This document shows, piece after piece, positions 29,899-51,711 of a stretch of DNA of 64,000 nucleotides (within the stretch, counting starts at the first letter, position 1; every line of letters starts with the position of its first letter). A model generated the notes under the pieces. It was not told the DNA's origin and searched no databases. It saw only the letters and a program-made list of their open reading frames with translations. The translations under genes and the position numbers were made by a program. The DNA is from Actinomycetota bacterium (GTDB lineage Bacteria > Actinomycetota > Thermoleophilia > Solirubrobacterales > JACPNS01): the NCBI GenBank assembly GCA_016213645.1, contig JACQZY010000013.1:1-64000 (forward strand), read 5' to 3'.

Positions 29899-29916
29899 TT
29901 ACATGAATTCATGTAA
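29899..29916. promoter_or_regulatory. Perfect 18-bp palindrome TTACATGAATTCATGTAA
   Basis: It lies 81 bp upstream of the first acetoacetate-decarboxylase-like gene, in an AT-rich patch of a 194-bp gap after mobA. Size and symmetry fit a TetR/GntR-type operator. No matching regulator gene is adjacent. Confidence 0.65.
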
Positions 29917-29996: not shown

Positions 29997-30896
29997 ATGC
30001 GAGCAACTAGTTTCTTCGAAGGTGTCCGCCAGGCCGACATCGACGTGCAAGGCGACATCGTCAAGCTGCCGATCTTCTACTACGACGGCGAGTCAATGAC
30101 CGGAATCTACCCGGCCAAGCTCAGCGGTCTGCGCAAGCTGCTGCCGGACAAGCGTCTCTCGCCCGCGCGACTCGCACCGGGCATCGGCGCGGTTTCGATC
30201 ACCTGCTTCGAATACCGCGACAGCGACGTCGGCACGTACAACGAGCTGGCGATCGGCATCGCCCTCAACTACCCGCACCACCGGCCCAACCTGCCGGGCC
30301 TCGCGATGCTCGGCGGCGTGCTGCGCGGACAGGTCGACGGCTTCGTCCACCACCTTCCGGTCACAACCGAACTTGCGCTGAAGGCCGGCCGCGAGCTTTG
30401 GAACTACCCCAAGTTCGTTGCGTCGATCGACTACGAGCAGGACGAGAACACCCGCACCTGCCGCCTGGCCGAAGGCGCCGAGCACATCCTCACGATGCGC
30501 GGGCCGCGCATTCGCAGCCACCGCACCGAGGACCTGCAGCTCTTTACGCACGTCTTCCAGGACGGACAGCCGCAGCGCGGCGAGTTCAAGCTGCGCGCGC
30601 AGAACTCCGGCCAATCGATCAAGCGCGGCGCTGCCCAGCTAGAGCTCGGCACGCAGCACCCGATCGCCAAGGAGCTTGGAAGCGTGCTGCTGTCCACGAA
30701 GTCGATCGCCGCTTCCTACACGCCAAGCCTCCAGGGCATCCTGTTTGGTCCGGAAAACGTGAACTCACGCATGATCCAGCTTGCTGCACACGCACCGGGT
30801 TCAAAGCACGGCAACGGCGCCAAGGCCGACTCGGCCGCCGACACAAAGGCCGCGCCGAAGCCGGCGGCCAAGTCCAAGGCCAAGACGTCGGCCTGA
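29997..30896 (+). CDS. Acetoacetate decarboxylase-like protein, copy 1
   Basis: 299 aa. The fold is ADC-like, with PIFYYDGESMTGIYPA, ITCFEYRDSD, YNELAIGI and ELWNYPKF. Lys139 (in YPKF) aligns with the Schiff-base Lys of acetoacetate decarboxylase, but the neighbouring Lys that tunes its pKa is Phe here. So decarboxylation of acetoacetate itself is doubtful, and another beta-keto-acid or an aldolase/dehydratase-type reaction is possible. The last 35 residues are an Ala/Lys-rich tail. The start at 29997 is set by the paralogue's N-terminus and AAAAGGGG upstream. An in-frame ATG at 29952 adds 15 residues. Followed 20 bp later by its acyl-CoA dehydrogenase partner. Confidence 0.82.
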   Translation: MRATSFFEGVRQADIDVQGDIVKLPIFYYDGESMTGIYPAKLSGLRKLLPDKRLSPARLAPGIGAVSITCFEYRDSDVGTYNELAIGIALNYPHHRPNLPGLAMLGGVLRGQVDGFVHHLPVTTELALKAGRELWNYPKFVASIDYEQDENTRTCRLAEGAEHILTMRGPRIRSHRTEDLQLFTHVFQDGQPQRGEFKLRAQNSGQSIKRGAAQLELGTQHPIAKELGSVLLSTKSIAASYTPSLQGILFGPENVNSRMIQLAAHAPGSKHGNGAKADSAADTKAAPKPAAKSKAKTSA

Positions 30897-30915
30897 ACCA
30901 CACGGAGGTAAGAAA

Positions 30916-32400
30916 ATGAGTTCCGCACGAAACGGCTCCGGCGCTTTGCTGGAGATGGCCCCGCGTATCGCCGGTCACCCGCAGCTTTCCGGTAGCAAGC
31001 TCGCCGAGCTTGAAGACGCAGTCCTCGCGACGCGCCGCTTCGCCGTAAACACAATCCGGCCGCGCGCGCTGGAGATCGACCGCGTCAACTACGACGAACC
31101 CGGCACGATCGCCTGGGACATCGTGCGCGAAGGCGGAAAGATCGGCTTGCTGAATCTTGTCACTCCGCGCGCTTCGGGCGGCGCGTCCGACCTCGCCTGC
31201 CTGCGCACGGCATTGATCGCGGAAGAGATCGCCGCCGGTTGCGCCGGTTTTGCCACGCTCTTTGGTGCGCACGGACTCGGCGCCTCGCCTCTGGCGATGG
31301 GCGGTCCCGCGTTTTGGGACGGCGCGCTGAAGGAAGCCGCCGACAGCGCGTGCGATCCAAAGCCGCAGCTGATGGCCTTCTGCATCACCGAGCCGACCGC
31401 CGGTACGGACGTGGAACACCACGTGTGGATGCGCACCGCCAAGGTGGTCACGCGGGCCGACAAGGTCAAGGGCGGCTGGGAGCTGACCGGCACCAAGCAC
31501 TTCATCAGCAACGGCAACGCCGCGACCTGGCTGACGGTGTTTATGCCGACCGACCCGAAGCGCCCATACGAAACGCTTTCGGCGTTCTTGGTCGACGGCC
31601 GCGCAAAGGGCCTGACCGTGACCAACGTCGAGCACAAGATGGGCCATCGCGCATCGCCCGCCGCTGAACTGAGCTTCGACAAGGTGTTCGTGCCAGACAA
31701 GAACCTGATCGGCCGCGAGGGCGACGGCATGGGTCTGACGATCGGCGTGCTCGCCGGTTCGCGTCCGCCTGTCGGCGCAATCGGCACGGGTATCGCGCGC
31801 GGTGCCTACGAGCGCCTGCTCGAATGGCTGCAAACCGATCCAGCGGCAGAGGGTCTGCTCGACAAGCAGCAGGTTCAGCTGGCGCTCGCGCAGATGAACG
31901 AGGAGATCCACCTCGCGCGTCAGGCATACATCGACGCTGCCACGGACTTCGACACGATCTCGATCGGCGGCCTGACCGGCACGGCGGCAATGCGCATGCT
32001 CGGCAAGTTGCCGAGCGGACTGCGCACCAACCGGCTGGTCCGTAGTCAGATGCAGACCTCGCTCGGGCGCGGACTCGTGATGGAAGTGATGTCACGCACC
32101 GTCGGCAACCGCGCGCTCACGCGCACGCTCGGCCTTTCGTCGCTGGCGAAGGCACGCGGCAGCGACACGGCGATGAAGGTCACCGGCATGGCGCTGGAGG
32201 TCGCCGGTCTGGACTGCGGTCGTCTGCGGCCCGAACTGGAGAAGTGTCTGCGCGACGCCAAGCTCACGCAGATCTACGAAGGCACCAACCAGCTGAACCG
32301 GCTGGAGGTCTTTGAAGGCCTGGTGGCCGAACACACAATGTCGATTCTGCCGAGGCCCACGGTGTCAAACACCAACGGCGCCTCCGCGGCGGTGGCCTGA
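30916..32400 (+). CDS. Acyl-CoA dehydrogenase, long form, copy 1
   Basis: 494 aa, about 110 longer than typical. It contains the FAD-contact segment CITEPTAGTDVEHHV, LTGTKHFISNGNAATW in the middle domain, and the C-terminal IYEGTNQLNRL with the catalytic-type Glu. Excellent ribosome site GGAGGTAAGAAA before the ATG at 30916. Paired with the ADC-like gene. The paralogue at 33476 has the same layout, so the ADC-dehydrogenase pair was duplicated as a unit. Expected reaction: FAD-dependent alpha,beta-oxidation of an acyl-CoA, with an unknown substrate. Confidence 0.88.
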   Translation: MSSARNGSGALLEMAPRIAGHPQLSGSKLAELEDAVLATRRFAVNTIRPRALEIDRVNYDEPGTIAWDIVREGGKIGLLNLVTPRASGGASDLACLRTALIAEEIAAGCAGFATLFGAHGLGASPLAMGGPAFWDGALKEAADSACDPKPQLMAFCITEPTAGTDVEHHVWMRTAKVVTRADKVKGGWELTGTKHFISNGNAATWLTVFMPTDPKRPYETLSAFLVDGRAKGLTVTNVEHKMGHRASPAAELSFDKVFVPDKNLIGREGDGMGLTIGVLAGSRPPVGAIGTGIARGAYERLLEWLQTDPAAEGLLDKQQVQLALAQMNEEIHLARQAYIDAATDFDTISIGGLTGTAAMRMLGKLPSGLRTNRLVRSQMQTSLGRGLVMEVMSRTVGNRALTRTLGLSSLAKARGSDTAMKVTGMALEVAGLDCGRLRPELEKCLRDAKLTQIYEGTNQLNRLEVFEGLVAEHTMSILPRPTVSNTNGASAAVA

Positions 32401-32491
32401 AAAGGTCGCCGCCGCCGTTTCGGCGTACGGTGGATGCAGGAATGAAGAACCAGAGGTCAATCGCCGCGAGCCGGCAGGACGGTGCGTCTTG

Positions 32492-32546
32492 AAAATGAAC
32501 TTCATTCATTTTGCCATCATTTGGTGTAATATTGAACCAAGTTCAA
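32492..32546. promoter_or_regulatory. Two palindromes upstream of ADC copy 2
   Basis: AAAATGAA-N5-TTCATTTT (32492-32512) and TTGAAC-CAA-GTTCAA (32532-32546) lie in an AT-rich patch 85-139 bp before the second ADC-like gene, with TAATAT between them. They likely mark a promoter with an operator. They share TGAA/TTCA half-sites with the palindrome before ADC copy 1. The rest of the 230-bp gap shows nothing else. Confidence 0.6.
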
Positions 32547-32630
32547 AAAGCCCTGCACTGCGCGGCGAGGCTGATCGCGCGCAGTTGAGGGCGTCAAGCG
32601 AAAGCTCTCATTAGAAAGGCCCCGACACAC

Positions 32631-33455
32631 ATGCGCGCGTCCACGTACTTCGAAGGAATCCGTCAGACGCCGGTCAAGACCGGCGAGTTCGAGTTCCAGG
32701 TTCCCCTGTTCTATTACGACGGTGAGCAGATGACCGGGGTTTTCCCGGCCAAGCTCTCCAAGCTCAAGAAGATGCTGCCGGACCCGCGCATCTCGCCCGC
32801 GCGAATCGCACCCGGCGTCGGCGCGGTCACGATCACCTGCTTCGAGTACCGCGACACCGACATCGCTCCTTACAACGAGCTTGCGATCGGCATCCCGCTG
32901 AACGAGCCGTTCTTCCGCCCAAACCTGCCCGGCCAGGCGATGCTCGACGCGGTGCGTCGCGGCCAGTACGACACCTGGGTGCACCACCTGCCCGTGACCA
33001 CCGAGATCGCGCGCGCCGGCGGCGTGGACTTCTACAACTACCCGAAGTTCATCGCCGCGATCGACTTCGAGCAGACCGATCAAACGCGCACCTGCCGCCT
33101 GGCCGAGGGTGCCGAGCACATCCTCACGCTGCGCGCGCCCCGCATCCAGAGCAGCCGCGACGAAGAGGTACAGATCTTCAGTCACCTCTACCAAAACCGC
33201 GAGCCGCAGACCTCCGAGTTCAAGATCCTCGCGCACAACCTTGGTCGTTCAATCAAATTTGGCGCCGCCACGCTTGAGATCGGTGACCGTCACCCGATCG
33301 CGCGCGAACTCAAGGACGCGCTGATTTCGACGAAGTCGATCGCCGCCGCGTACTCGCCGCGCATCGAGGGCATCCTCTACGGGCCGCATCACCTCACGCC
33401 GGAAGTCATCGACCGCATCATCGACCTGCAGTCGCTGCAGAGCGCGAAGGCGTAA
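32631..33455 (+). CDS. Acetoacetate decarboxylase-like protein, copy 2
   Basis: 274 aa, closely related to the protein at 29997: same start (MRA-S-FEG-RQ), same Lys139 in NYPKF, Phe at the next position, but no Ala/Lys tail. FFRPNLPGQAML and AAIDFEQTDQTRTC match copy 1 in the same places. The role should parallel copy 1, maybe with a different substrate or inducer. The following dehydrogenase gene starts 20 bp later. AGAAAGG lies upstream. Confidence 0.82.
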   Translation: MRASTYFEGIRQTPVKTGEFEFQVPLFYYDGEQMTGVFPAKLSKLKKMLPDPRISPARIAPGVGAVTITCFEYRDTDIAPYNELAIGIPLNEPFFRPNLPGQAMLDAVRRGQYDTWVHHLPVTTEIARAGGVDFYNYPKFIAAIDFEQTDQTRTCRLAEGAEHILTLRAPRIQSSRDEEVQIFSHLYQNREPQTSEFKILAHNLGRSIKFGAATLEIGDRHPIARELKDALISTKSIAAAYSPRIEGILYGPHHLTPEVIDRIIDLQSLQSAKA

Positions 33456-33475
33456 GGGCCGGAGGAGATAAACAA

Positions 33476-34972
33476 GTGACGGTCAAGACCCTCTCCCCGC
33501 TGCGAGAAGCCGCTCCGCGCCTGGCCGACCATCCGCAACTACGCGGCCAAAAACTCGCGGCGATCGAAGAACTAGTGCTCAAGACGCGCGCGTTCTCGCG
33601 GGGCCGCATTCGCTCGCGCGCACTTGAAATCGATCGCATCGCCGACGAGGACCCCGGTTATTTCGCCTGGGATCTGGCATCGGAGGGCGGTCGCATCGGC
33701 CTGCTGAACCTGATCACGCCTCGCCCGTCGGGCGGCGACGCAGACCATTTCTGTCTGCGCAGCTCACTGATCGCCGAAGAGATCGCCGCCGGCTGCGGCG
33801 GCATGGCAACGATGTTCGGCGCGCACGCGCTGGGTCTGTCGCCATTGGTGGTCGGCGGTCCGGCCTTCTGGGACGGGGTGATGAGAGATATCGCCGAAAG
33901 CAGCACCAGCACGCGACCCTTGATCGCGGCGTGCGCGATCACCGAGCCGACCGCCGGGACGGACGTGGAGCATCACGAACACGTGCGCACCGCAAAGCTC
34001 GTCAGTCGCGCCGAGAAGGTCAAGGGCGGCTACCGGATCTCCGGCGTCAAGCACTTCATCAGCAACGGCAACGTCGCGCGCTGGATCACGGTGATCCTGC
34101 CGACAGACCCAAAGCGCGCGTACGAGACAACGATGGCGTTTCTGGTCGACAGCGAAAGCCCGGGCTTCAGCGTGACCAAGGTCGAGCACAAGATGGGACA
34201 GCGCGGATCGCCCGCCGCCGAGCTGACGTTTGACAATGTGTTCGTGTCCGACGACCGCACGATCGGGCGCCCCGGCGACGGTACGCCGATGGTCGCCGGA
34301 GTGCTGGCGGCGTCGCGGCCCGTTGTCGGCGGCATCGGCACCGGCATCGCGCGCGGCGCGTACGAGCGTCTGGTGGATTGGCTCCAGAACGACCCGGCCG
34401 CCGAGGGTCTGCTCGACAAGCAGCAGGTCCAGCTGGCGCTGGCGCAGATGTGGGAAGACATCCACCTCTCGCGCCAGGCGTATCTGGACGCGGCCACCGA
34501 GTTCGACATGATCTCGCTCGGCAAGCTGTTTTCTAATCCGCTGGTGAAGGCCTTCGGCCTGATGCCGGCGGCATTGCGCACAAATCCGATCGCGCGCAAG
34601 CAACTCAGCTCCAATCTGTCGCGCCGCATGCTGATCGAGCTGGTCAACCGCGAGGTCGGCGACGAAACGCTCACAAAGACGCTTGGAATTTCGTCGATGG
34701 CCAAGGCTCACGGCGGCGACACGGCGATGAAGGTCACCGGCATGGCGCTGGAGATCGCCGGGCTGGACTGCGGCCCGTTGCGCGCGGAGCTGGAGAAGTG
34801 CATGCGCGACGCCAAGCTCAATCAGATTTACGAGGGAACAAACCAACTGAACCGCCTGGAGGCCTACGCAGGACTGGTCGCCGGGGAATCGATGAAGGTG
34901 CTTGCCGACGCCGTCGGCAAACGCCGTAAAGACACAAACGGCCGGTACGCCGGCGCGGAGGTATTGAACTGA
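33476..34972 (+). CDS. Acyl-CoA dehydrogenase, long form, copy 2
   Basis: 498 aa, paralogue of the gene at 30916. It has AITEPTAGTDVEHHEHV, SNGNVARWITV and IYEGTNQLNRLEAY, so the catalytic Glu motif is kept. GTG start after GGAGGAGATAAACAA. The TGA overlaps the next dehydrogenase ATG (TGATG), a sign of translational coupling and of equal amounts of the two proteins. Together with the next gene it may form a two-type (alpha2beta2) dehydrogenase as known for some steroid-degrading enzymes; this is inference. Confidence 0.88.
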   Translation: MTVKTLSPLREAAPRLADHPQLRGQKLAAIEELVLKTRAFSRGRIRSRALEIDRIADEDPGYFAWDLASEGGRIGLLNLITPRPSGGDADHFCLRSSLIAEEIAAGCGGMATMFGAHALGLSPLVVGGPAFWDGVMRDIAESSTSTRPLIAACAITEPTAGTDVEHHEHVRTAKLVSRAEKVKGGYRISGVKHFISNGNVARWITVILPTDPKRAYETTMAFLVDSESPGFSVTKVEHKMGQRGSPAAELTFDNVFVSDDRTIGRPGDGTPMVAGVLAASRPVVGGIGTGIARGAYERLVDWLQNDPAAEGLLDKQQVQLALAQMWEDIHLSRQAYLDAATEFDMISLGKLFSNPLVKAFGLMPAALRTNPIARKQLSSNLSRRMLIELVNREVGDETLTKTLGISSMAKAHGGDTAMKVTGMALEIAGLDCGPLRAELEKCMRDAKLNQIYEGTNQLNRLEAYAGLVAGESMKVLADAVGKRRKDTNGRYAGAEVLN

Positions 34973-36042
34973 TGAACGACCAGACGGTGATCGGCGACGC
35001 CGCGATCTCGGCCGACGAGCTCGCGGAGTTCGTGTCGGTGGCGCGCAGCTTTGCCCAGGACGTTCCGGGCAAGCTCTGGGCGGAGCTTGACGTGGGCGCC
35101 AAGGACGCGATCGAAAAAAGCTGGAACGGAGTCTGCGAGATCGGTTTCGACCGTTGCCTGGTGGACGAAGACGCCGGAGGTGCCGGCCTGCCCGCGGCGG
35201 CCTTGCCCGCGATCGTCGAGGAGATCGCCACCGGAGACGGCGGCGTGGCGATGTTGACGCTGCTCTCGAACATCGCGCTGGCCGCGCTGCCGGACGACAA
35301 GATCTCCGGCCTGCGCGAGAACGGACGTTTCGTTTACGCGCCGGCCGTAGGCTCCCGCGAACCGAACGTCACACTGCCCACGCTCAGCGGAGGCAAGCTG
35401 ACCGGCGAGGCCGCGTTCGTGGTCGGCGGCTGGCAGGCCGACGGCCTGGTCGTAGCCTGCCGCGACGGCGAGTCATTTGCGCTGGCGGCCGTTGACGGCG
35501 ACGACGCCGGTGTCAAGTTCGAACTCGTGGACGACCAGCTCGCGCTGGGCAGCGCCCGCGTCGCGCGCGTCGCGTTCAGCTCCGCCACCGCCACAGCCGT
35601 CGGCGGAGCGAACGAGCTGGCCCACGCAGACGCGGTATTGAACGCCGGCATCGGCGCGATCTCACGCGGCATCTCACGCCGCGCCCGCGGCCTGGCCCAG
35701 GAGTACGCGGAAAACCGCTACCAGGGCGGCGGCCAGATCATCATCCACGGCGCCGTACGCGACATGCTCGCGCGCATGAGCGAGCGCGAACTGGGAATGC
35801 CCCAGGCATCGCTGTCGGGCGCAGGATCGGAACTGGCAATCGGACTGGCGAGCAAGATCTCCCTCACCGACGCCGCGGTGCTAACCACACTCGACGCCAT
35901 CCAGGTCTTCGGCGGCATGGGCTACATGCGCGAGACCGGCGTGGAGAAGCTGATGCGCGACGCCAAGTACTGCCAGGTATACCCGCGTCCCAACTGGATT
36001 GCGCGCGACGAGCTGCTGGAACTGCAGCGCGAGCGCCACTAA
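34972..36042 (+). CDS. Acyl-CoA dehydrogenase-family subunit lacking the EGT motif
   Basis: 356 aa. ACAD fold by its C-terminal helical part (ISRGISRRARGLAQEYAENR, IQVFGGMGYMRETGVEKLMRDAK), but the end reads YCQVYPRPNWIARDEL where active members have YEGTNQ, so the catalytic Glu is absent. The middle domain lacks the T-E-P-x-A-G-S flavin motif. I infer a non-catalytic or structural partner of the coupled long dehydrogenase upstream. Its 3' part is duplicated at 51041-51336. The operon ends here, with a hairpin and terminator following. Confidence 0.85.
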   Translation: MNDQTVIGDAAISADELAEFVSVARSFAQDVPGKLWAELDVGAKDAIEKSWNGVCEIGFDRCLVDEDAGGAGLPAAALPAIVEEIATGDGGVAMLTLLSNIALAALPDDKISGLRENGRFVYAPAVGSREPNVTLPTLSGGKLTGEAAFVVGGWQADGLVVACRDGESFALAAVDGDDAGVKFELVDDQLALGSARVARVAFSSATATAVGGANELAHADAVLNAGIGAISRGISRRARGLAQEYAENRYQGGGQIIIHGAVRDMLARMSERELGMPQASLSGAGSELAIGLASKISLTDAAVLTTLDAIQVFGGMGYMRETGVEKLMRDAKYCQVYPRPNWIARDELLELQRERH

Positions 36043-37843: not shown

Positions 37844-40800
37844 TCACGAGTACCGGCAGTAGTACATCGGAAAAGGATGCTCGGCCGGCATTCCTCGCAC
37901 TACATAATCTGTTGCGTCGTCTGATTCATCCACATCGGATTCCCTGAGAGTAAAGACCGGCGTGATCGTATACATATAGGGTTTTGGTTTATCACCCGGA
38001 CAATCGTTCGGGTTACCGAGCATTAGGGTGATGTTCATCTTGTCAGGAATGGCATGGTTGAAAGCTTCATTTTCCGAGATGGTGAATCTCGTGTCGGATG
38101 AGTCTGGTCCCTGCTGCCATATCGGGTCCAGACCGATATCGCCACAGTAGATTGGATGACACGCAACCGGTTTTTCACACCGGTCACCCGGTGCAACTCC
38201 GAATGGACCAGACCACACGCACAGCTCATAGCTCACCGTGTACTCATATGCCTTGTCCGGCTCAAGTTGGAACTTCGCAGGCGTAGTGTTCAAATCGACG
38301 TGTATCCCCACACCAGTCCCTCCAACGGCATTCGAATGATGCATGCTTCTCACAGCGGTCTGGCCTCCCGATCCTTGAACGCCGTTCCAGTCGCCGGAGG
38401 CCCTGTTGTCACCACCGCAGGTATCGTCGACCTTCCACGAGAGCAGGTAGCAAAGAGCTGGTCGCGGTCGCGTCTGATACTCGCCGTTCTCCCCCTCTCG
38501 ACGTGGTGTGTGGCAATCCGGTTCTGAGCCGTTCCAATTCAGCCGGTCTTCCGGCGGACATCGCTGTTCAGGATGTTCAAGGAGCGAACTGTCGAACCCG
38601 GCGACTGTTTCTCCCGGCGGAATCCCGTCACCCTCTTGAAGCTGGTACAAAAACGCTCCTTGCACTGAACTAAACAGCTTCGACGCCGAGTCGCCACCGT
38701 TGCTGAGGTAACCCCGCCACGCGCTCTTTCTTGCGTTTGCGCGCATGAAGAACAAAAACCGGTTCATGGCCAATGGCGCGGCTGTTTTGCGCGCGTTATC
38801 CGAATTCCCCTGCACGGCCGGGTATTTACCACGGTTCAGCGCGACGCCACCTTCAGTCATCCATAGCTTCGCCTCTCGAAGATCGCGATTACCGTTGATC
38901 AGAGCCACGATATTCGTGAGGACCTTGAACTTCTCAGTGCCATGGTCAGTCTGCTTGACATTTGAAGAACCCGCTTTGTACTTCTTGCCCGGTGTCGAGA
39001 TATCGCCGTAATCATGGAACGACCAAACCGACGGTGGATCCATCGGGATGCCTTTTGCGGTTTTCACAAGTAATCGAACATAACGTGAGCGGAATTTCGA
39101 ACTTCCACTAAATGCGAACTCTCCAGCCACGGGTTCACACGTTCTCGGTGAACAGAACGGGTCGGTTTGTATTTTGCGCTGCGCATAGAACCACGAAAAG
39201 GCGGCGGTTTGGACTGAGACATTCCCAAAGTTGTCTGGCTCGTTAATTGCGCTCCAATACCGGATTAAGCCACCGTGGTCGTGGGCAAATTTCTGCAAGT
39301 TGTCGTAGAGGCGATAATAAAAACCCAATAAATGACCCTCGTTGCACGGCTGGAACGTACGTGTAGTTATGTCGGCCGGCGTAGAGCTGCATTGCGCGCT
39401 TGGCACCCAATGGACTGGTTCCGGACTCAGATAAATATCGAGCGTGCGACCGGAACGAACACTCCATTGGATCGCGTTAAATATTTTGCGCTGAGCCTGC
39501 CACAGATCCCAGCAACGCGATGCGAATTGATATGGATTTCCATTATCGGTACCGACACTCGCATCGACGTCGCTCGACTTGACCACCCCATTTGCTCCGC
39601 CGGGAATCTCGGCGCCCCCAGGGTCCTTGCACGGCTGGTCGTCGACGACATCCCAAGGGACAAGGACTCTGTATGTTGCTCCGGCCGGCGAGTGATTAAT
39701 AGCGCTGAACTGACCCATTATCCCGTTCAGATAGGTCTCGAGCGGCTGAGCGAACATGCTCGGCTGTCCTCCGGCAAGTCCGTAATGGAAGTACTTCTTC
39801 TCGCTCCGCGAGCGCTTCCTCTTTGAAGTGGAATTCGACACTGCCCGTGCTGAAGTCTTCACCGGACCCGTCGCTCCCTGTGTGTCGACGTGCAACGTAA
39901 TCTCTCCAGCGTCCGCATCGACGGTGAAATTCGTCGGAAGGCTCGCGCCGAGGGCATCCTTTGCGACCGGTTTGCGGATCAATAGATCCACGGCGTCGCC
40001 ATTTGCCGCTTCAGCCGCGTCGATCGCATTTACGTCGTCGGCATATTCGTCTCGACCCATCCCGGTCGTATCGTCGGGATTCACGGGGTCGATGTCCGCC
40101 AGGTCGCCATAACCTGACTCCACCGGCGGTCCCATCAACGCGACCGAGCCGTCATCGAGCAATGCCAAACGCTGTCCAGGCCAAAGGTTCGCCTTCCAAC
40201 GGAATTCAACCTGACCGGATGGCTCAGGTACCAACACGTTCAGTTCTAGGCCTGAAAGCGTCGGCCGTACCGCGAGATCTGACGCTCCGGCGAAATCGCC
40301 GACAAGCGCTGCGTTTCCATTGACCACAGAGCCATTGGTCGCCGCTGCGGTCACTGCAACCGGAGCTAGGTTCACGGCTCCTTCGGATGTCTCGATCGCC
40401 ACGCCGTTCTCCGGTTCCAGTGCGACGTTGGACTCGACGAACGACCCCTGAGTGTCAAATTGCTCGGCCGTTTGACTGATTTCGGTGGAAACCGCCGGCG
40501 TCATCGAACCGTCGGCCGTACCTATCGTTGCCGATGTTTGAAGCGTTTCTGGAAACGCAAGGTCGAGCATCGCGATCGCCTGCTCAACGGCCGGAGGAAA
40601 ACTACTTGGCGCAAACCTGAACTTACGAGAAGCCGTGCGAAGCGTAAAATTACCGCTCTCATCAATCGCCGCGACTTCGAACGTGTGATCGCCCTCGCCA
40701 AGCCCGGTCGCGGTCCACGGAGAACTGCACGCCGACCATTCGTCGTCGTCAACACGACAACGGAATTCGCCCGGTTCGTTGGACGAGAAATCGAAGGCAG

Positions 40801-43800
40801 GAGAAGACGCAATTACGCTTCCGTCGCTTGGGCCGCCATCGATAAACGTCGCGGGTCGAGTGACGTCACGATAGGCGCGGCCGTAATCGAAGATCACGGA
40901 CCTGACAACGGGCGGACCGGCATTGCCGTCCGAGTCGACCGCGCTGACCGCAAAAGTTCGGCGACCGGAGTAGCGCGATTCAAGCGTGAACGGCGACGCG
41001 CACGGCGAGAATTCGCCGCCGTCGATCGCACACTCTGTCGATATTCCGGGATCGGCGGAGAACTCGAAAACCGGCGAAATCAACTGGAAGTGCGCGTCAT
41101 CCTCCGGCGCGGAAGCCAATTCCACGAGCGCTCCTTGGAGCACGAGGAAGCTCCGGAATTCAGGCGCGGATCGGTTCCCGGCTGGATCGACCGCCCGTAC
41201 GCTGAGCGAGTGTTCACCCTCGCTGAATTCCGGAGTGTACGGCGTGTCGCAATCCGTATAGCCTCCATTGTCAATCGAACACTCGAACGTTACGCCGGTC
41301 TCGCCGCTTTCAAAGCGGAACTCAGGGGTTGAATCGTACGAAATTGCCCCGTCTGCCGTACCAGCAATGATGGAAACCGTCGGGGCCGAGGTGTCGACAG
41401 TAAAACCACGCGACGCAGGATCGCCAAGTTGCGCCAGGGACCCATCAACGGCACGAACAGTGAATTCATGCGATCCATCGCCGAGCGACGCTACCGCGAA
41501 CGGTGAGGTGCACGTGGCGAATGGAGCCCCGTCAACACTGCACTCGAATGCTGACTGCTGACCGTCGCCGGCGAATTCAAAATCGGGAGCCTCCTCCGAG
41601 ATCGCCTGACCTTCGCCGGGACCGGAGATAATCGTTACGACCACACGCGAATCAGCGGTCTCGCAGCCGACCGGCGACTGATCTAGCGAATCGGCAGTGA
41701 GTGAGTCCGCTCCGTCGCCGCAGTCGATATCGTCGCTTGAACCATCGCGCGCGCTGACCGTGTCGTCTCCGTCGAGCGCATAAACCAAGTCGGCACCGTT
41801 GCCCGGGTCAATCACATTGGCCGAGTCGGTGCCGGTGATCTCGTCGCTCGCGTGTCCTCCGCGAGCGTTCTCCACATCCGCGGCAATCCAATCGTTCTCA
41901 CCATTTGAGCCATTGTCGTAGCTATCGCGGAGATCGATCGTCAGCGGCACATTGCGACCGGAGTAGTCAACCGTGTCGACGCCGTTGCCGCCCGAAAAGA
42001 CGTTCGAACCTTCGCCGTCAATTAATAGGTCGTCGCCATCCTCTCCATGGAGACTGTCCCCCAGCGACGACGCCACCAACTTGTCGTTTCCGGCGCCACC
42101 CCAATACTCGCCCATGTTGGGTCCGCCGCGAATGTCATCATCGCCGTCCTCGCCGAACGCCTGCGGCGCGACGGCGGTCGTTGTCCGGACTCGAATTGAG
42201 TCGTTCAGGTCCCCCGCATAAACAACCACCGAGGTCGCGGATTGACCAGCGCAACGAACATCGCTTTGACCCTCTGCGGAGCACCCCGATCCGGCTGTAA
42301 TCGGTGCTGCACGATCTGAAAAACGACCGATTCGAGAGTTCGCGACAACGGACACCTCGTTTGACTCGCCGGGTGCCGCAAGATACACATATTCCGTGTG
42401 CGGAAGCGGTGCGGGTAAAATCCGCTCGAACGCAACCGAACGGGTTTCAATCGCCTCGCAATCCGTGGACGTGTCAAGGCGATCGCCGTCAATCGAATCT
42501 GCGCCGTCGCCGCACGCTATAGCTTCGGCCTCTCCGTCGGTAACCGAAAGAGCGTCGTCACCATCGCCGCCATCGAGGAAGTCCGCTCCGGCTCGACCGT
42601 CTAGGTCGTCATCACCCAGACCACCGATAGCGACGTCCGGCCCCGCGCCGCCTCTAAATCGATCTCCACCACCGCCTCCGTTGAATTCAACCGAAGACCG
42701 AACATCCTCGCCGACGACGACTTCGTCCGCGAACGAACTTCCCTGGATGACGACCGGGCCGTAATTTCCTTGCCGATCATCGCATTCCAATGTCGTCGAC
42801 GTAATGCGCTTACAAGCGAATCCGGGAGCGAGGCTGCCGGCTTCACCGGAGATCAGATACGCATCACCGTCAAAGGAGACCTCAATGTCTTGCGCATCCG
42901 CTGAGGATGCGAGATCGATTTTGAGACTCCCATCGATCCACTCCGTGTTGGGAATGATGAAAGACACGTCGAAGGCGACAGATGCAGACGAAGCGTTTCC
43001 AAGCCCGTCAATCGCCGTGATCGTCACCGAATGAGAGCCTTCCGAGACCGGACCCGGGGTAAACAGCGAGACACACGCAACGGGATCGCCGCCATTCGTA
43101 GAACACGAAGCGGTGGCGGACGGATCGTCGATGCTGAAACTGATCACCGGAGCCATTTCAGCCGTCGTCCCAATAGGCGCCGACTCGATGGTCACGACCG
43201 GTGCGGTCCCGTCAACGATGAAAGATCGCTGGCTCACGGACGCCGGATCGTCATCGCCCGCAGGCCGCACGGCCACTTCATGGGCACCGTCCGAAAGAGA
43301 TGGCGTCACGTATGGAGATAAGCACTTAGCCCATTCGGTCTGGTCAATGTTGCACTCAACCCAAACGCCGGCCGGGCTCTCGAATCGGAACTCGGGCGTC
43401 CGGTCAGAGATGGTCGAACCCTCAGTCGGAGCCGAAGTAAAAGTGACGGAGTCGGCGAGCGCCACTTCCTCGCAATTGCTGAGACCGCTTTCGTCCACGA
43501 CGTCGGAGGTAACTGAATCAACGCCGTCGCCACAGTCGGCGATGTCGGCCATTCCATCCCTCAAAAGCAGAGTGTCGTTGCCGCCCCTGGCGTCCACCAT
43601 GTCGACACCGTCGCTGAAGTCCCCGTAGCCGGGATCGATGGTTTCGGCGCTGTCGCTGCCGATGATCTCGTCGTTGTCTATCCCGCCAAGTACGCGCTCG
43701 AAACTGGATTCGAACACGTCTCCTTCAGCACCATCCAAGGCTCCGCTCGTCGTCTGCGCACCTCCTTCGTTGACGATCTTGAGTGGTTCCGATCTGTCTG

Positions 43801-46800
43801 AGTAATCAACCGTGTCGACGCCGGCTTCTCCGGCCAACGTGTCCGCACCCTCGCCGCCATCCAAATTGTCGTCACCGTCACCACCGGAGACCGTGTCGTT
43901 TCCGAAGTTTCCAACAAGCGCGTCGTCGCCTCCTCCGCCAAGCAAATGATCATCGCCGCTGCCACCCACAAGGACGTCATCTCCGCCGTTTCCGATTAGG
44001 TTGCGGCTCACCCCTTGCTGGGGAGTTAGTCCGTCGGTCGTCGAGAACGTGTCGTCTTCGGGGCCTCCGACAAGTCGTTCGATCGACGGCAATACGTTGT
44101 CACCTTCATTCGCTTCGCCATCGTTGGCTACGACTGACTCTCCGTCCACGGATTCGGACATCGAAATCGTGACCGGTCCCGCCGCCGTACCGACTCGATA
44201 TTCGTCCTGACCACCGGTTCCGCCGTCGTAATAATCGCCGCCGTCATTTCCATTTCCATGCCCGTCTCCGCCAATGAACACGTCATTGCCGGTACCACCG
44301 TCGACATAATCATCGCCCAAGCCGCCGACGACGGTGTCGGTCTGCGATCCTCCGACGATCACGTCGTCGTCGTCTCCACCATCGATCGCTGTTACCACCG
44401 CGACGCCGTCTCCGACCGAGATCGAATCGTCCCCGTCACTAGTTGCCACCGAGATTGAGTCGATCGAGCCAATGTCCGCACATTCGACGCGGTGAGCGTC
44501 AACCTGAACGCAACCGTCACCCGCGGTGAATCCGTCCGCGACGTCGGTGACTACGTAAGCCGAGCTGACGTAGTCGACGTTGATCGTGCTGGCGACTCCA
44601 TCGCCGGTATCGATCGTCAACCTCGTACCCGAAACCGTAACGTCAGGTCTGGCTGAAACGGTGAAATTTCGTGTGACAGCCGGCAAATCGGCTGAAAAAA
44701 CCGAGTCTTTGGGGCGCACTGCGAACGCGTGGGCACCATTTCCGAGCATCGGAATGGTGAAAGGCGATTCACACGAAATGTATGCCGCCCAGTCAACCGA
44801 GCACTTAAACGTCGCCGACGGCTCGTTCGAGACGAATTCAAATGTCGGAGAGGGATCGGCGCTGGACCCTCCGTCCGACGGTCCGCTTGTGATCTCCACG
44901 TCGGGCGATAGGTCAGCAGTTTCACAGTCTCCGTACGTCTGATCGATGCCGTTGTCACCGATTATCTCGTCTTCACCGATACCACATAGAACCACGTCAG
45001 CCTGGTCGTCGCGGGCGTAAATCACGTCGTTGCCCGCCTCACTTTCGATGTGATCCTCGCCGGCACCGCCGTGGATCTCGTCGTCGCCGTTGAATCCAAA
45101 AAGCATGTTGTCGAATTGGTCGCCGATGATTACGTCGTCGCCAAGGCTTCCGGCGATCTGTCCGCCGTCGAGATCGACAAAGTCGTGCTCATCGGGTGCA
45201 CCGTCGTTGGCTAAATCGTCGATCTCCACGCGCACTCCGGTCGTGCGCTCGTTGTAGCTCATGCCGTCCTCGCCGTCGCCGTGAATCGTGTCCGCACCAG
45301 GACCACCACCCAGGATCTCCATACCCGGACCGCCAAACACCTCGTCATCGCCGGCTTCTCCGGCCACCGCCGAGCGATATTGCGATGACGTATAAAACGT
45401 CATCGTGTCGTCCTGATCGCCGAGGTAAGCCAGCGTGATGAGCCATCCGAGTTCACAGGAAACGTGGTGCACGTCGACCAGCCAGCAGCCGGGGCCGGCG
45501 ACCATCGGTGCCGTCAAATCCTGGTAGTTGACACCGTTTTCGTCGACTGTCATCGTGAGGTCGTTCTGGACCCCTTCACCAGCGCGGATCTCGTAGTACG
45601 AAAAGGTAGGTTGAACTTCGACGCTCGAAACGACTGTCGCCGCAAGTACGACCTGTACTTCAAAAGTCACGGCGGCCATGGCGACGTTTCCGGCCGCATC
45701 TCGTGAGTACACGCTGAACGTATGCTGCCCATCCGAAAGCGGACCCATGTCATACCTGACCGAACACGATTCGGCAGGCGCGGCGTCAAGCGAGCATGTG
45801 TCCTCGGTCGCCGTCGTATCCGTAGTCACGAAGTAACCAGTCGTTGACGCCGAGTTGACGACAGCCCCGTCGGTCGGCGACGTGATCGTGACAACCGGTG
45901 CTTCGCTGTCGACGTTGAATGAAACGCTTGCGGGAGTCTGGTCGGCGTTGCCGGCCGCGTCGACCGCGCGAACGGAGAACGCCTGCCAGCCCTGCGACAG
46001 CAGCGGCGTGTAGCCCGAGGTGCACGGCATCCAGGACGAGCCCTCGATCTGGCACTCGAACACGGCTTCGGGCTCTGACGAGAACTGGAACATCGGCGAG
46101 TTTGTGGCGATCAGTGCGCCCTGCGACGGCGCCGTGTCCAGCGTTGTCTCTGGCGGGACCGTGTCGACGGTGAACGTCGTTGCCGAAGCCGATGCGTTGC
46201 CGACGATGTCTTCTGCCGCGACCGCGACCGTGTGTGCGCCCTCCGCCAACGAGGTGGTGGTGTACGGCGAGGCGCAGGCTTCGGGTTGGCTCGCGTCTAC
46301 CTGGCAGGTCGTCGTGATCGACGACATGTCGGTCGCGGTGAACGTCACTTGCGGCGCGGCGTTCGTTATGCGCGCGCCGTTGACGGGCCAGGTCGTTGCG
46401 ACGACCGGCGCCGTTGTGTCGACGGTGAAGTTCCGGCTGAGTAGCCACATGATCCCGTTGCCCGCCGCGTCCGTCGCGCCCAACCAGAACGTGTGAGCGC
46501 CGTCCGCAAGCGGTACCGCGGGCGTGACACCACTCGCGCACGATTGCATCGGGTTCTCGTCGAACCGGCACTCGAATGTCGTGCCCGGCTCATTGGAGGT
46601 GAAGTTGAACGGCGGCGAGGCGTCGGCGATCGTCGAGCCTTCGGCCGGGCCACCGGTGATCAAAACGTCGGGCGGCGTCGTGTCCGTGGTGAACGTGACC
46701 GACGCCGCGCTCGCGTGGCCGACGATGTCGGTCGCCGACACTTGCAGGGAGTGTGATCCGTCGGCCAAGCCGCTCATCACGTACGGCGCCGAGCACGATT

Positions 46801-49800
46801 CGGCGGGCAGCGAATCGAGTTGACACTCGATGTTGAGGGACGAGGCGTCGTTGACGTTGAACATCGAAATCACGGTCGGCTGGTTGAATACCTGTCCGTC
46901 GGAGGGGCTTTGGATCGAGATCTCGGGCGTGAGATTGTCGACATAGAAGTTCCGCGTCTCCGGCGTCTGATCAACGTTGCCCGCCGCATCGATCGCGCGA
47001 ACCCAGAACATGTGGAGCCCCTCACTTAGCGGCCCGACAGCGAGCGGCGACGTGCACGAGTTGAATCCGCCCGTGTTGAGCCAGCATTCAAAGCCGACGC
47101 CGGGCTCCGAGGAGAACGTAAGCGCAGGGCTGGCGGTGGCGATCGTCGAGCCGTTTGACGGCGCCGCGTCTAGAGAGGTCTCGGGCGGTACGGTGTCGAT
47201 CGTGAACGTCGTTGCGGCGGCGGCGGAGTTGCCGCCGTCGTCGGTGCTGACGACGGTCACCGTGTGCGTGCCGTCCGCAAGCACCGGTGTCGTGTACGGA
47301 GACGTGCACGGTACCGGAGCGTCGGAATCCACCTGGCACGTCTCCGTGAATCCGGAGTAGTCGGTGATCGTGAACGCGACCTGCGGTGTCGGCCAGTTCA
47401 GGAACGATCCCGTATTCGGCGAGGTGACCGCCACGGTCGGGGCGACCGTATCGACGATGAAAGTACGTGACGCTGGCGTGGCATCGGCGTTTCCGGCCGC
47501 GTCGATCGCGTAGACGTCAATCGAGTGGACGCCGTCGGAGAGCACGGGGCTTGTGAAGGTTGAGGCGCAAAGCGAGTACGGCGAACCGTCGACGCGGCAG
47601 TTGTACGCGGAGCCCGGCTCGTTCGCGTCGAATGTGAATACCGGCGATGCGGCGTTGGTCACCGAAAGTTGCGCGGGCCCGCCGGTGATCGTCGTCTCGG
47701 GCGGCGTGCGGTCGATCGTGAAGTCGGCCACGGCGCTGCCGGAGTTGCCCGCGAGATCCGTGCTGGTCACGACAAGCGTGTGCGGTCCCTCATCAAGGCC
47801 CGACAGGATCGCCGGCGAGGAGCACGACTCGGCCGCCGCGCCATCGAGCCGGCAGGTCGTCGAGCCGTCTGACACGGAGAACGTCACCCACAGTCCCGTC
47901 CAGTTAAACACCGAGCCGCTCGGCGGATCGAGGATCGTCACGGTCGGAGGCGTGATGTCGACCGTGAACTCTCGCCACTCGGGCGTGGCTTCCGTGTTGC
48001 CCGCGGCGTCAACGGCGCGTACGCGGAACTCGTGCAGCCCTTCGGCGAGCGTACCGGTCGCAAACGGCGACGAGCACGGCGAGTAGCCGGTAGTGTCGAA
48101 TTCACACTCGAACGTCGTGTCGGCCTCCGACGAGAACGTGAAGGTCGGGGAGGTCGCGCTTGTGTAGCTGATGTGCGCGGGTCCGCCCGTGATCGTCGTC
48201 TCCGGCGGCGTGACATCGACCGTAAACGACCGCGCCTCCGGGGATAGGTCCGTATTGCCGAGCGCGTCCTTCGCTCGAACGCTGAAGGTGTGCGGTCCTT
48301 CGCCGAGCGTCGCGGTCGAGTATGGCGACGCGCAGGTGGCGAAAACGGCGCCGTCGACCGAGCACTCGAACGTCGTGTCGGCCTCGGAGCTAAACGAGAA
48401 GGTCGGCGTTTGGTCGTTGATCGTCGCGCCGTCGGCTGGGCCCGCGGTGATCGTCGTCTCAGGCGGCGTCGTGTCGACGATGAACGATCGGCTCACGGGC
48501 GTTTGGTCGACGTCGCCGACCGCGTCGATCGCCCGCACGTAGAAGGTGTGACCGCCGTCTGCCTGCGGTGTCGTCAAGTAGGGCGACAAGCAGGCGGCAA
48601 ACGCACCCGCGTCGATCCTGCACTCGAAGGTTGCCGGTGCCGACGCCGTGAACGAGTAAGTCGCGCTCGCAGTCGCGATCGTCGCGCCGTTGGCCGGTCC
48701 GGACGTGATCTGCGCCGGCTGGGGCAGGTTCGCCGTTAGGCAGCCGGTGAGCGTGTCGGCCACGTCGGCCGTGACGGTGTCGGTCTGACCGCCGCAGTTG
48801 GCTGTGTCGGCGGTCATGTCGCGCATCCAGAGCGTGTCGTTGCCCGTTGAGCCGAGCACGTTGTCGGAGCCGGCGCCGCCGGTCAGCACGTCGTCTCCGG
48901 CCGATCCGTCGATCGTGTCGTTGCCGGCCAGGCCATTGACGACGTTTGCCGTCGACGTGCCGGTGAGCGTGTCGTTGAAGCCCGAGCCGGTCAGGTTCTC
49001 GTTGTTGGTGAGCGTGTCCGAGCCGGCGCCGACCGTGTTCTGCGCCGTCGTCGTCGTAAGGTTCACGGTGACGCCCGCCGTCGCCGACGAGTACGAAACC
49101 GTGTCGATGCCGGTCGAGCCGTTCAGCGTGTCGTTGCCGGCGGCGCCGGTTAGGACATTGTCGCCCGTAGTGCCCGTGAGCGAGTCGTTGAAGGCCGAGC
49201 CGATCGCGTTCTCGTCGCCGCTCAAGGTGTCGCTGCCGGAACCGCCGGTCGACTGGGCGGCGGTGGTCGCCAGGCTGAGCGTGATCGCCGCCGTGGCCGT
49301 GGCGTAGGAAACGGTGTCGGTCCCGGTGCCGCCGGTGAGCGTGTCGTTGCCCGCGCCGCCGTCGAGTGTGTCGTTGCCGGTGCCGGCGTTCAGCACGTTG
49401 GCGGCGCTTGAGCCGGTCAGCACGTCGTCAAAGTTGGAGCCGGTAAGCATTTCGTCGTTAGTCAGAGTGTCCGTGCCGGCGCCGATGGTGTTCTGCGCGG
49501 AGGTCGTTGCGAGGCTCACCGTAACGCCCGCGGTCGCGTTGGCGTACGAGATGGTGTCGGTGCCGCCGTTGCCGTTTAGGGCGTTGTCGCCAGCGCTGCC
49601 TGTGAGCGTGTCGGCAGCGCTGCCGCCGATCAGGTTTTCGACGTCGGTCTGGATGTTGTCACCTTCGCCGGAGACGCCGTCGTTTGCCGTGCCGTCGATG
49701 GACGCGGTCACGGCGCTGGTGCGGGTGGAGTAAGTTGCCGTGTCGGTGCCGGTCCCGCCCCAGATCACGTCGACCCCGGTGTTGGGATTGACGCTGTCGT

Positions 49801-50704: not shown

Positions 50705-50953
50705 CATTTTCCCCCTTGAATCCAACGAATTGGTCCCTATCCCGAATCGAATAAACCCAGCCACAAGCTGATTTGCAGTCGCGATGTGGTTTAGCCGTAA
50801 AGCCTTCACGACTCCGATAAGCGGTGACACTATACCGAAGAGTAACTGCGACAAACAAACATAAATAGGGAGTATTCCGACCTCGAAATGTTTCTTGGAC
50901 CACCGAACCACTCCAGTTTCCCGATAAGACATACGGATCAATTCCAGTTCGAC

Positions 50954-51336
50954 TGACGGCGACGCCGCCGGTGTCAGGTTCGAACAGGTCGACGACCAAC
51001 TAGCGCTCGGCAACGCTCGCGTGGCACGCGTCAACGTTCAACGGCGCCGTGCGCGACATGCTCGCGCGCATGAGCGAGCGCGAACTGGGAATGCCCCAGG
51101 CATCGCTGTCGGGCGCAGGCTCGGAACTGGCAATCGGACTGGCGAGCAAGATCTCCCTCACCGACGCCGCGGTGCTAACCACACTCGACGCCATCCAGGT
51201 CTTCGGCGGCATGGGTTACATGCGCGAGACCGGCGTGGAGAAGCTGATGCGCGACGCCAAGTACTGCCAGGTATACCCGCGTCCCAACTGGATTGCGCGC
51301 GACGAGCTGCTGGAACTGCAGCGGGAGCGCCACTAA
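50954..51336 (+). pseudogene. Remnant of the dehydrogenase-like gene, internally deleted
   Basis: 50954-51039 matches 35493-35578 at about 80% identity. 51041-51336 then matches 35747-36042 at about 98%. The 167 bp between are missing, which breaks the frame, and no start codon context exists. The last 95 codons still read identically to the intact protein's C-terminus. The sharp change in similarity suggests an older paralogue whose 3' end was later overwritten by recombination with the intact gene. Confidence 0.85.
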
Positions 51337-51476
51337 ACCTGTCTCGGGCCGGCGCCGTGCTCGCGCAGGGGCGAGGCGCCGGCCCAGCAGGAATCTGATG
51401 GACGGACCGTTGTTGGCGAGACCTTCAGTTCAGGCGGGACCCATCCCGGCCCGCCTGACCTTTTCATGCTGAGGTC
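51041..51476. repeat. Direct repeat copy B (436 bp), right edge of 15-kb segment
   Basis: Pair of 35747-36182, same orientation. It includes the hairpin and the terminator at 51430-51464. Differences seen include A/G at 51050, A/C at 51119 and a cluster of four near 51394-51408. Confidence 0.95.
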
Positions 51477-51711
51477 ACATTCAACTTTCCGCAGTTGAAG
51501 GATCGAGTTCCGTTGCGGCAACGCCCGGCGACGACTTGTTCGAATCAATCGCGCGGCGGTCGGTGATTCGCCGTAGCCGCTCGCCTAGGAGCGAGCACCT
51601 GGCGAAACGTTCGGCGCCACAGGCGCCGTATCTCAACCGGAGCGTGCAGCCGCACACTCCACCGATGCGTCGCTTGATTAGTGTGCACGCCCACGACCGA
51701 AGTCGCGACGT
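51337..51711. other. Non-coding stretch after direct repeat B
   Basis: Holds the duplicated hairpin and terminator (to 51464) and then the 89-bp repeat. From 51564 to 51711 I see no gene, only mixed sequence running to the convergent ATPase stop. Confidence 0.6.
51475..51563. repeat. 89-bp direct repeat, left copy
   Basis: Aligns without gaps to 53906-53994 at roughly 80% identity. The first 15 bases (TCACATTCAACTTTC) and the block TTGCGGCAACGC are exact. It starts at the very end of the 436-bp repeat. Confidence 0.75.

What the first reader, a model, noticed from the sequence alone, without database searches (positions are those of the whole stretch)
29997..36042. Duplicated ADC-like plus acyl-CoA dehydrogenase module
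The pattern ADC-ACAD, then ADC-ACAD-ACAD*, with equal 20-bp spacing, is a duplicated functional unit. Both ADC-like proteins keep the Schiff-base Lys139 but have Phe for the pKa-tuning Lys, so they likely act on something other than acetoacetate. I know no named pathway with this set.
Basis: partly seen in the sequence, partly recalled or inferred. Interest (0 to 1): 0.6.

Follow-up and report, generated by a model that had tools for sequence, protein, structure and literature searches.

The report
ADC-like enzyme with split acyl-CoA dehydrogenase
A conserved bacterial gene set, present here in two old and separately maintained copies, couples a decarboxylase-like Schiff-base enzyme to what looks like a two-part acyl-CoA dehydrogenase whose active site is shared between a catalytic and a cofactor-holding subunit; its substrate is unknown.

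Summary
Window 29997-36042 carries ADC1-ACAD1 and ADC2-ACAD2-ACAD*; the copies are 61% and 65% identical, with ADC-to-ACAD gaps of 19 and 20 nt. It is not chance. The triad ADC-ACAD-ACAD* occurs in 13 of 13 readable loci of the Solirubrobacterales set, in four loci of other actinobacterial families, and reordered in one MAG of unstated phylum. The nearest relative (G614) keeps the ADC1-ACAD1 pair on another contig, so the two units are old orthologous groups, not a fresh tandem copy.

The main new point concerns ACAD*. The ACAD keeps the catalytic Glu (YEGTN) and the flavin-ring motifs but lacks the Arg and Gln/Gly that normally reach FAD from the partner subunit. ACAD* keeps exactly those and lacks the rest. 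This is the split of the alpha2beta2 (ChsE/FadE26-27) dehydrogenases. I predict a heteromeric ACAD for a bulky or branched acyl-CoA, with the ADC-like Schiff-base enzyme acting on a keto acid of the same route.

ADC: K139-F140 confirmed; superfamily fold met; NCBI's ADC equivalog model not met. Substrate, reaction and subunit assembly are untested. New variant of a known kind.

The parts
29899..29916 (.). perfect 18-nt palindrome TTACATGAATTCATGTAA upstream of ADC1; possible operator
   Evidence: function inferred only
29997..30896 (+). ADC1, ADC-like Schiff-base enzyme (type 1), K139-F140, Lys/Ala-rich C-terminal tail
30916..32400 (+). ACAD1, catalytic (alpha) acyl-CoA dehydrogenase subunit, type 1
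32492..32512 (.). inverted repeat AAAATGAACTTCATTCATTTT upstream of ADC2; possible operator; a similar stretch (TGAACTTTGTTCA) lies upstream of the L003 ADC
   Evidence: function inferred only
32631..33455 (+). ADC2, ADC-like Schiff-base enzyme (type 2), K139-F140
33476..34972 (+). ACAD2, catalytic (alpha) acyl-CoA dehydrogenase subunit, type 2, catalytic Glu453 in IYEGTNQ
34972..36042 (+). ACAD*, predicted cofactor-holding (beta) subunit: R249, Q311, G315 kept; Pro338 in place of the catalytic Glu
50946..51489 (+). broken second copy of the ACAD* 3' part: 50946-51048 diverged (82% nt), 51038-51489 97% nt

Best explanation
The module encodes part of an acyl-CoA catabolic (or tailoring) route. 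ACAD and ACAD* form one heteromeric acyl-CoA dehydrogenase that works like the alpha2beta2 ChsE enzymes. ACAD (alpha) supplies the flavin-ring site and the catalytic Glu; ACAD* (beta) grips the ADP side of FAD, so there is one FAD and one active site per alpha-beta pair, probably making room for a bulky, cyclic or branched acyl-CoA. The ADC-like protein forms a Schiff base through Lys139 with a keto acid of the same route and decarboxylates it, or does the related aldol/retro-aldol step. In this genus the ADC-ACAD pair was duplicated, giving a second alpha subunit and a second ADC, probably with shifted specificity; the second alpha probably borrows the single ACAD*. Shown: gene order, its conservation, the division of motifs, the duplication history, the folds. 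Inferred: subunit assembly, cofactor number, reaction order, substrate class.
For: Conserved order ADC-ACAD-ACAD* in 13 of 13 readable loci of the Solirubrobacterales set, in L053, L055, L056, L057, and reordered in L016. Complementary residues: alpha keeps ITEPxAGTD, KxFISNG and the YEGTN Glu, and lacks QxxGG and the aligned Arg; beta keeps R249, Q311, G315, has Pro338 for Glu and lacks the ITEP and FISN motifs. The partner-contributed residues in human SCAD are Arg297, Gln365, Gly369 (PMC13027082); alpha2beta2 ACADs divide labour this way (PMC11153573; PMC8399759). The ACAD* model resembles ACADs, with the steroid heteromer subunit Tcur3481-3483 (6wy8) among the top matches. ADC model matches only ADC-superfamily structures at significant E-values. 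Pair kept together on another contig in G614. A divergent TetR gene upstream in six relatives and a ligase/SDR/thiolase context in L075 fit an acyl-CoA degradation unit.
Against: No assay, complex model or substrate. No acyl-CoA ligase, hydratase or thiolase lies in the module itself. The window lacks the divergent TetR. Many ADCs of the wider family have no ACAD beside them. Copy 1 has no ACAD* of its own in either genome. L075, the most telling context, carries a more distant ADC and ACADs of another type. Methyltransferase neighbours in L053 and L055 would also fit lipid tailoring.
Confidence: 0.5

Rival explanations
1. The ACADs are ordinary homo-oligomeric fatty acyl-CoA dehydrogenases, ACAD* is a decaying non-functional paralogue, and the ADC is a plain acetoacetate decarboxylase that removes acetoacetate formed by beta-oxidation.
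For: Sequence of ACAD is closest to MCAD-type homotetramers among solved structures; ACAD* has lost the catalytic Glu; Lys, Glu and Tyr pocket residues of ADC are kept; a truly broken ACAD* piece lies at 51 kb.
Against: ACAD* is intact in all complete loci and keeps exactly the partner-FAD residues that ACAD lacks, across several families. ACAD without QxxGG should bind FAD poorly as a homodimer (inference). NF002614 does not match.
Confidence: 0.15
2. The module is biosynthetic: it tailors a lipid or a secondary metabolite, the ADC-like enzyme acting as an aldolase/cyclase as in MppR or SbAD, and the ACAD as an acyl desaturase.
For: Superfamily members MppR and the Swit_4259/SbAD enzymes do such chemistry (MppR in PMC10367076); CMAS-type or other methyltransferases lie downstream in L053 and L055.
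Against: No synthase, carrier-protein or transporter genes accompany the module in the loci read; TetR and beta-oxidation-type neighbours fit catabolism better.
Confidence: 0.25
3. ADC and ACAD are neighbours by chance of history and work in separate routes.
For: Other ADC copies of the same family stand alone or beside ABC transporter, DUF362 or amidase genes.
Against: The pair was duplicated together, and the pair alone stayed together on another contig in G614; it survives rearrangement in L016.
Confidence: 0.1

Closest known systems
alpha2beta2 steroid acyl-CoA dehydrogenases (ChsE4-ChsE5/FadE26-27, ChsE1-ChsE2/FadE28-29, Tcur3481-Tcur3483)
   Same: Two adjacent ACAD genes; only one product has the catalytic Glu; by motif, alpha holds flavin ring and substrate, beta the ADP side of FAD
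   Different: Paired with an ADC-like gene; sequence profile of beta scores 77 bits with Tcur3481 against 167 for the best homotetrameric ACAD; no steroid genes seen in the loci read; assembly not shown
Acetoacetate decarboxylase (ADC, e.g. 3bh2/3bgt)
   Same: Fold; Schiff-base Lys, Glu76 and Tyr113 equivalents K139, E83, Y137 by motif
   Different: 15-19% identity; Lys116 equivalent is Phe140; equivalog model NF002614 not matched
ADC-like cyclase/aldolase-dehydratases (MppR, Swit_4259, SbAD)
   Same: Same fold with an active-site Lys (PMC10367076 for MppR)
   Different: 10-15% identity; I know of no ACAD partner for them

Membership tests
ADC superfamily (PF06314) | Pfam ADC domain and ADC fold | tested here: met
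   Pfam 66.5 and 50.4 bits, cut-off 29.8; Foldseek E to 6.5e-13
ADC superfamily (PF06314) | Schiff-base Lys with pocket Glu and Tyr | tested here: met
   K139, E83, Y137 by motif; K139 and E83 invariant in 16 relatives; not superposed residue by residue
Acetoacetate decarboxylase proper | NCBI equivalog model NF002614 over cut-off | tested here: not met
   no match at E 0.001 in the genome; no NCBIfam hit for either ADC
Acetoacetate decarboxylase proper | Second Lys (Lys116) after the Schiff-base Lys | tested here: not met
   Phe140 in both copies
Acetoacetate decarboxylase proper | Acetone and CO2 from acetoacetate | not testable with these tools
   needs an assay
alpha2beta2 ACAD | Two adjacent ACAD genes, catalytic Glu in one only | tested here: met
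   ACAD2 Glu453, ACAD* Pro338
alpha2beta2 ACAD | FAD site divided: flavin ring in alpha, ADP side in beta | tested here: met
   motif distribution over several lineages read against PMC13027082 and PMC11153573; sequence evidence only
alpha2beta2 ACAD | Heterotetramer with two FAD | not testable with these tools
   needs co-expression or a complex model
alpha2beta2 ACAD | Common descent with the steroid FadE pairs | tested here: inconclusive
   profile ranking argues against; no tree made
alpha2beta2 ACAD | Role in steroid degradation | not tested
   the genome was not searched for ring-degradation genes

The most novel reading that the evidence does not exclude
A class of split (alpha-beta) acyl-CoA dehydrogenases that arose independently of the steroid FadE pairs, in a fixed partnership with a new subfamily of ADC-like Schiff-base enzymes, serving an undescribed acyl degradation or lipid-tailoring route in uncultured Actinomycetota.
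Probability: 0.35. Interest if true: 0.6.

Novelty: new variant of a known kind. Interest (0 to 1): 0.42.

Why it matters
Heterotetrameric ACADs are known chiefly from steroid degradation. A second, probably separate occurrence tied to an ADC-like enzyme would show that splitting the ACAD active site is a recurring answer to awkward substrates. It also gives a testable function to part of a superfamily whose members are mostly all annotated as 'acetoacetate decarboxylase', and a handle on acid metabolism in soil and groundwater bacteria known mainly from MAGs. The complementary residue sets make a clear prediction that one co-expression experiment can test.

Tried and rejected
Sequence search of the ADC against solved structures gave nothing useful, so fold comparison was used. 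Reading ACAD* as a pseudogene was rejected because the partner-FAD residues are kept across lineages. A recent tandem duplication was rejected: copy 2 is closer to L003 than to copy 1, and G614 (contig end and coordinates match L003's record) has the copy-1 pair elsewhere. The divergent TetR of relatives was sought in the window genome: best match 37% identity on another contig, so no regulator is assigned. Plasmid-borne ADC relatives have other neighbours (SDR, aldehyde dehydrogenase, hydrolase) and did not clarify the substrate. A remembered link to the KstR-regulated gene Rv3519 could not be confirmed and is not used. Paper searches turned up no description of an ADC-ACAD-ACAD* module. mobA was sought in congeners that lack the module, to read the empty site; only weak hits came back. 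A true ADC sequence for residue-by-residue comparison was not obtained.

Full report
What is there. The window lies in G000, a 2.42 Mb draft genome in 28 contigs; its nearest named relatives are Solirubrobacterales and other actinobacterial MAGs. At 29997-36042 five genes run on the + strand: ADC1, ACAD1, ADC2, ACAD2, ACAD*. ADC1 and ADC2 are 61% identical, ACAD1 and ACAD2 65%. The ADC-ACAD gaps are 19 and 20 nt, so 'equal 20-bp spacing' is right to one base. Upstream lie moaA- and mobA-like genes on the same strand (identified by eye); downstream a gene on the other strand. A 230-nt gap with inverted repeats separates ACAD1 from ADC2, so the two units probably have their own promoters (inference; the simple promoter scan found none).

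Is the pairing real? A collection search returned 15 loci. With profiles built from the alignments, the triad ADC-ACAD-ACAD* in this order was found in 13 of 13 loci of the Solirubrobacterales set long enough to show it (L003-L010, L012, L013, L015, L069, L070; in L012 ACAD* is cut by the contig end, in L013 frames are broken around N, and L005 is labelled Gammaproteobacteria but is a 5-kb contig that looks misbinned). It also occurs in L053, L055, L056 and L057 from other actinobacterial families, as ADC-ACAD in L062, and as ACAD*-ADC-ACAD in L016. The module is patchy: 12 of 299 genomes of the class have an ADC matching this profile, and 2 of 5 genomes of the genus. In the phylum sample 29 of 347 genomes have a member, many without an ACAD beside it, so the ADC family is broader than the module.

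History of the duplication. In trees, ADC1 and ACAD1 each join a clade with window copy 2 and L003 (98/99 and 100/100 support). G614, a genome of the same genus whose match coordinates equal those of L003's record, holds a second ADC-ACAD pair on another contig (L121). It is 71% and 74% identical to ADC1 and ACAD1, against 55% and 63% to copy 2; the trees pair it with the window's copy 1 at 100/99. So two orthologous units, a pair (type 1) and a triad (type 2), existed before these species parted, and the pair stays together wherever it lies. No ACAD* was found beside either type 1 unit. A broken ACAD* piece lies at 50946-51489: its first part is diverged (82% nt), its last 452 nt are 97% identical to ACAD* and its downstream region, which suggests later homogenisation; whether it once belonged to copy 1 is open.

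The split dehydrogenase. In ordinary ACADs FAD sits at the dimer interface: one subunit gives the flavin-ring site and the catalytic Glu, the neighbour gives an Arg and a Gln/Gly pair (human SCAD: Glu392; Arg297, Gln365, Gly369 from the adjacent monomer, PMC13027082). In this family ACAD has the ITEPxAGTD, KxFISNG and IYEGTNQ motifs invariant or nearly so but no QxxGG, and no Arg at the aligned place. ACAD* has R249, Q311 and G315 invariant in 11 relatives, with the same spacing of four between Gln and Gly, but Pro338 where the Glu should be and no ITEP or FISN motif in those checked. The same division holds in L053, L055, L056 and L057, and for beta in L016. Published alpha2beta2 ACADs are built this way: alpha binds the isoalloxazine and holds Glu and substrate, beta contacts the ADP-ribose of FAD (PMC11153573; PMC8399759). 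Hence the prediction of a heteromer with one active site per alpha-beta pair. Assembly itself is not shown. In the profile comparison beta scores 167 bits with the best homo-oligomeric ACAD and 77 with Tcur3481, which hints at a separate origin; no tree with the steroid enzymes was made.

The ADC-like protein. Its model (mean pLDDT 83) matches only ADC-superfamily structures at significant E-values: Swit_4259, ADC, MppR, SbAD, at 10-19% identity. Lys139 (Lys115), Glu83 (Glu76) and Tyr137 (Tyr113) are kept by motif. The residue after the Lys is Phe in nearly all relatives, Thr or Ser in two, Trp in several plasmid-borne ones. From my own knowledge, the 2009 structural study of ADC attributed the low pKa of Lys115 mainly to a hydrophobic pocket rather than to Lys116, so Phe there does not by itself exclude decarboxylation. 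The equivalog model of true ADC does not match.

Function. No neighbour fixes the substrate. The best-stocked context, L075, places a more distant ADC relative with TetR, SDR, SCP2-like, ACAD, acyl-CoA ligase, two further ACADs and a lipid-transfer-type thiolase, that is, an acyl-CoA degradation set. An SDR follows ACAD* in L008 (Pfam) and L056. A divergent TetR-like gene stands before ADC in six loci (two representatives confirmed by Pfam), with inverted repeats between them in several, which suits an inducible catabolic unit. In L053 and L055 a methyltransferase lies downstream, which leaves lipid tailoring possible. I give 0.5 to the stated mechanism as a whole; the heteromeric ACAD part alone I would put near 0.8.

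Noticed in passing
window 50946-51489: Broken second copy of the ACAD* 3' part and its downstream region, 97% identical over 452 nt, 15 kb from the intact gene, preceded by a diverged stretch (82%); overlaps the 5' end of the long minus-strand ORF.
   Followed up: partly
window 37844-51034 (-): A 4396-aa ORF with many GGxGxDxL-type and Ig-like repeats and a possible glycosidase-like end; very large for a 2.4 Mb genome. It lies between ACAD* and its broken copy.
   Followed up: no
L121 (G614:C11:12000-31900): Type 1 ADC-ACAD pair of the sister genome lies next to an iron-type ABC transporter gene, not next to the mob genes.
   Followed up: partly
L060, L061, L064, L072, L073: Another ADC subgroup sits divergently beside a gene of cluster c12, whose representative (L064) is a DUF362/ferredoxin-like protein; unexplained.
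   Followed up: no
L066, L067, L076, L082: A further ADC subgroup follows ABC transporter genes (ATPase, in most an ABC2 permease); in L067 and L076 a gene clustered with an NrpR-like regulator is also upstream.
   Followed up: no
L005: A 5-kb contig labelled Gammaproteobacteria carries a typical Solirubrobacterales triad and TetR gene; probably misbinned.
   Followed up: no
L006, L009, L070 upstream of ADC: Conserved TTAGGG-type inverted repeat (TTAGGGTACCCTAA and similar) just before ADC in the loci without the divergent TetR; possible site of another regulator.
   Followed up: no
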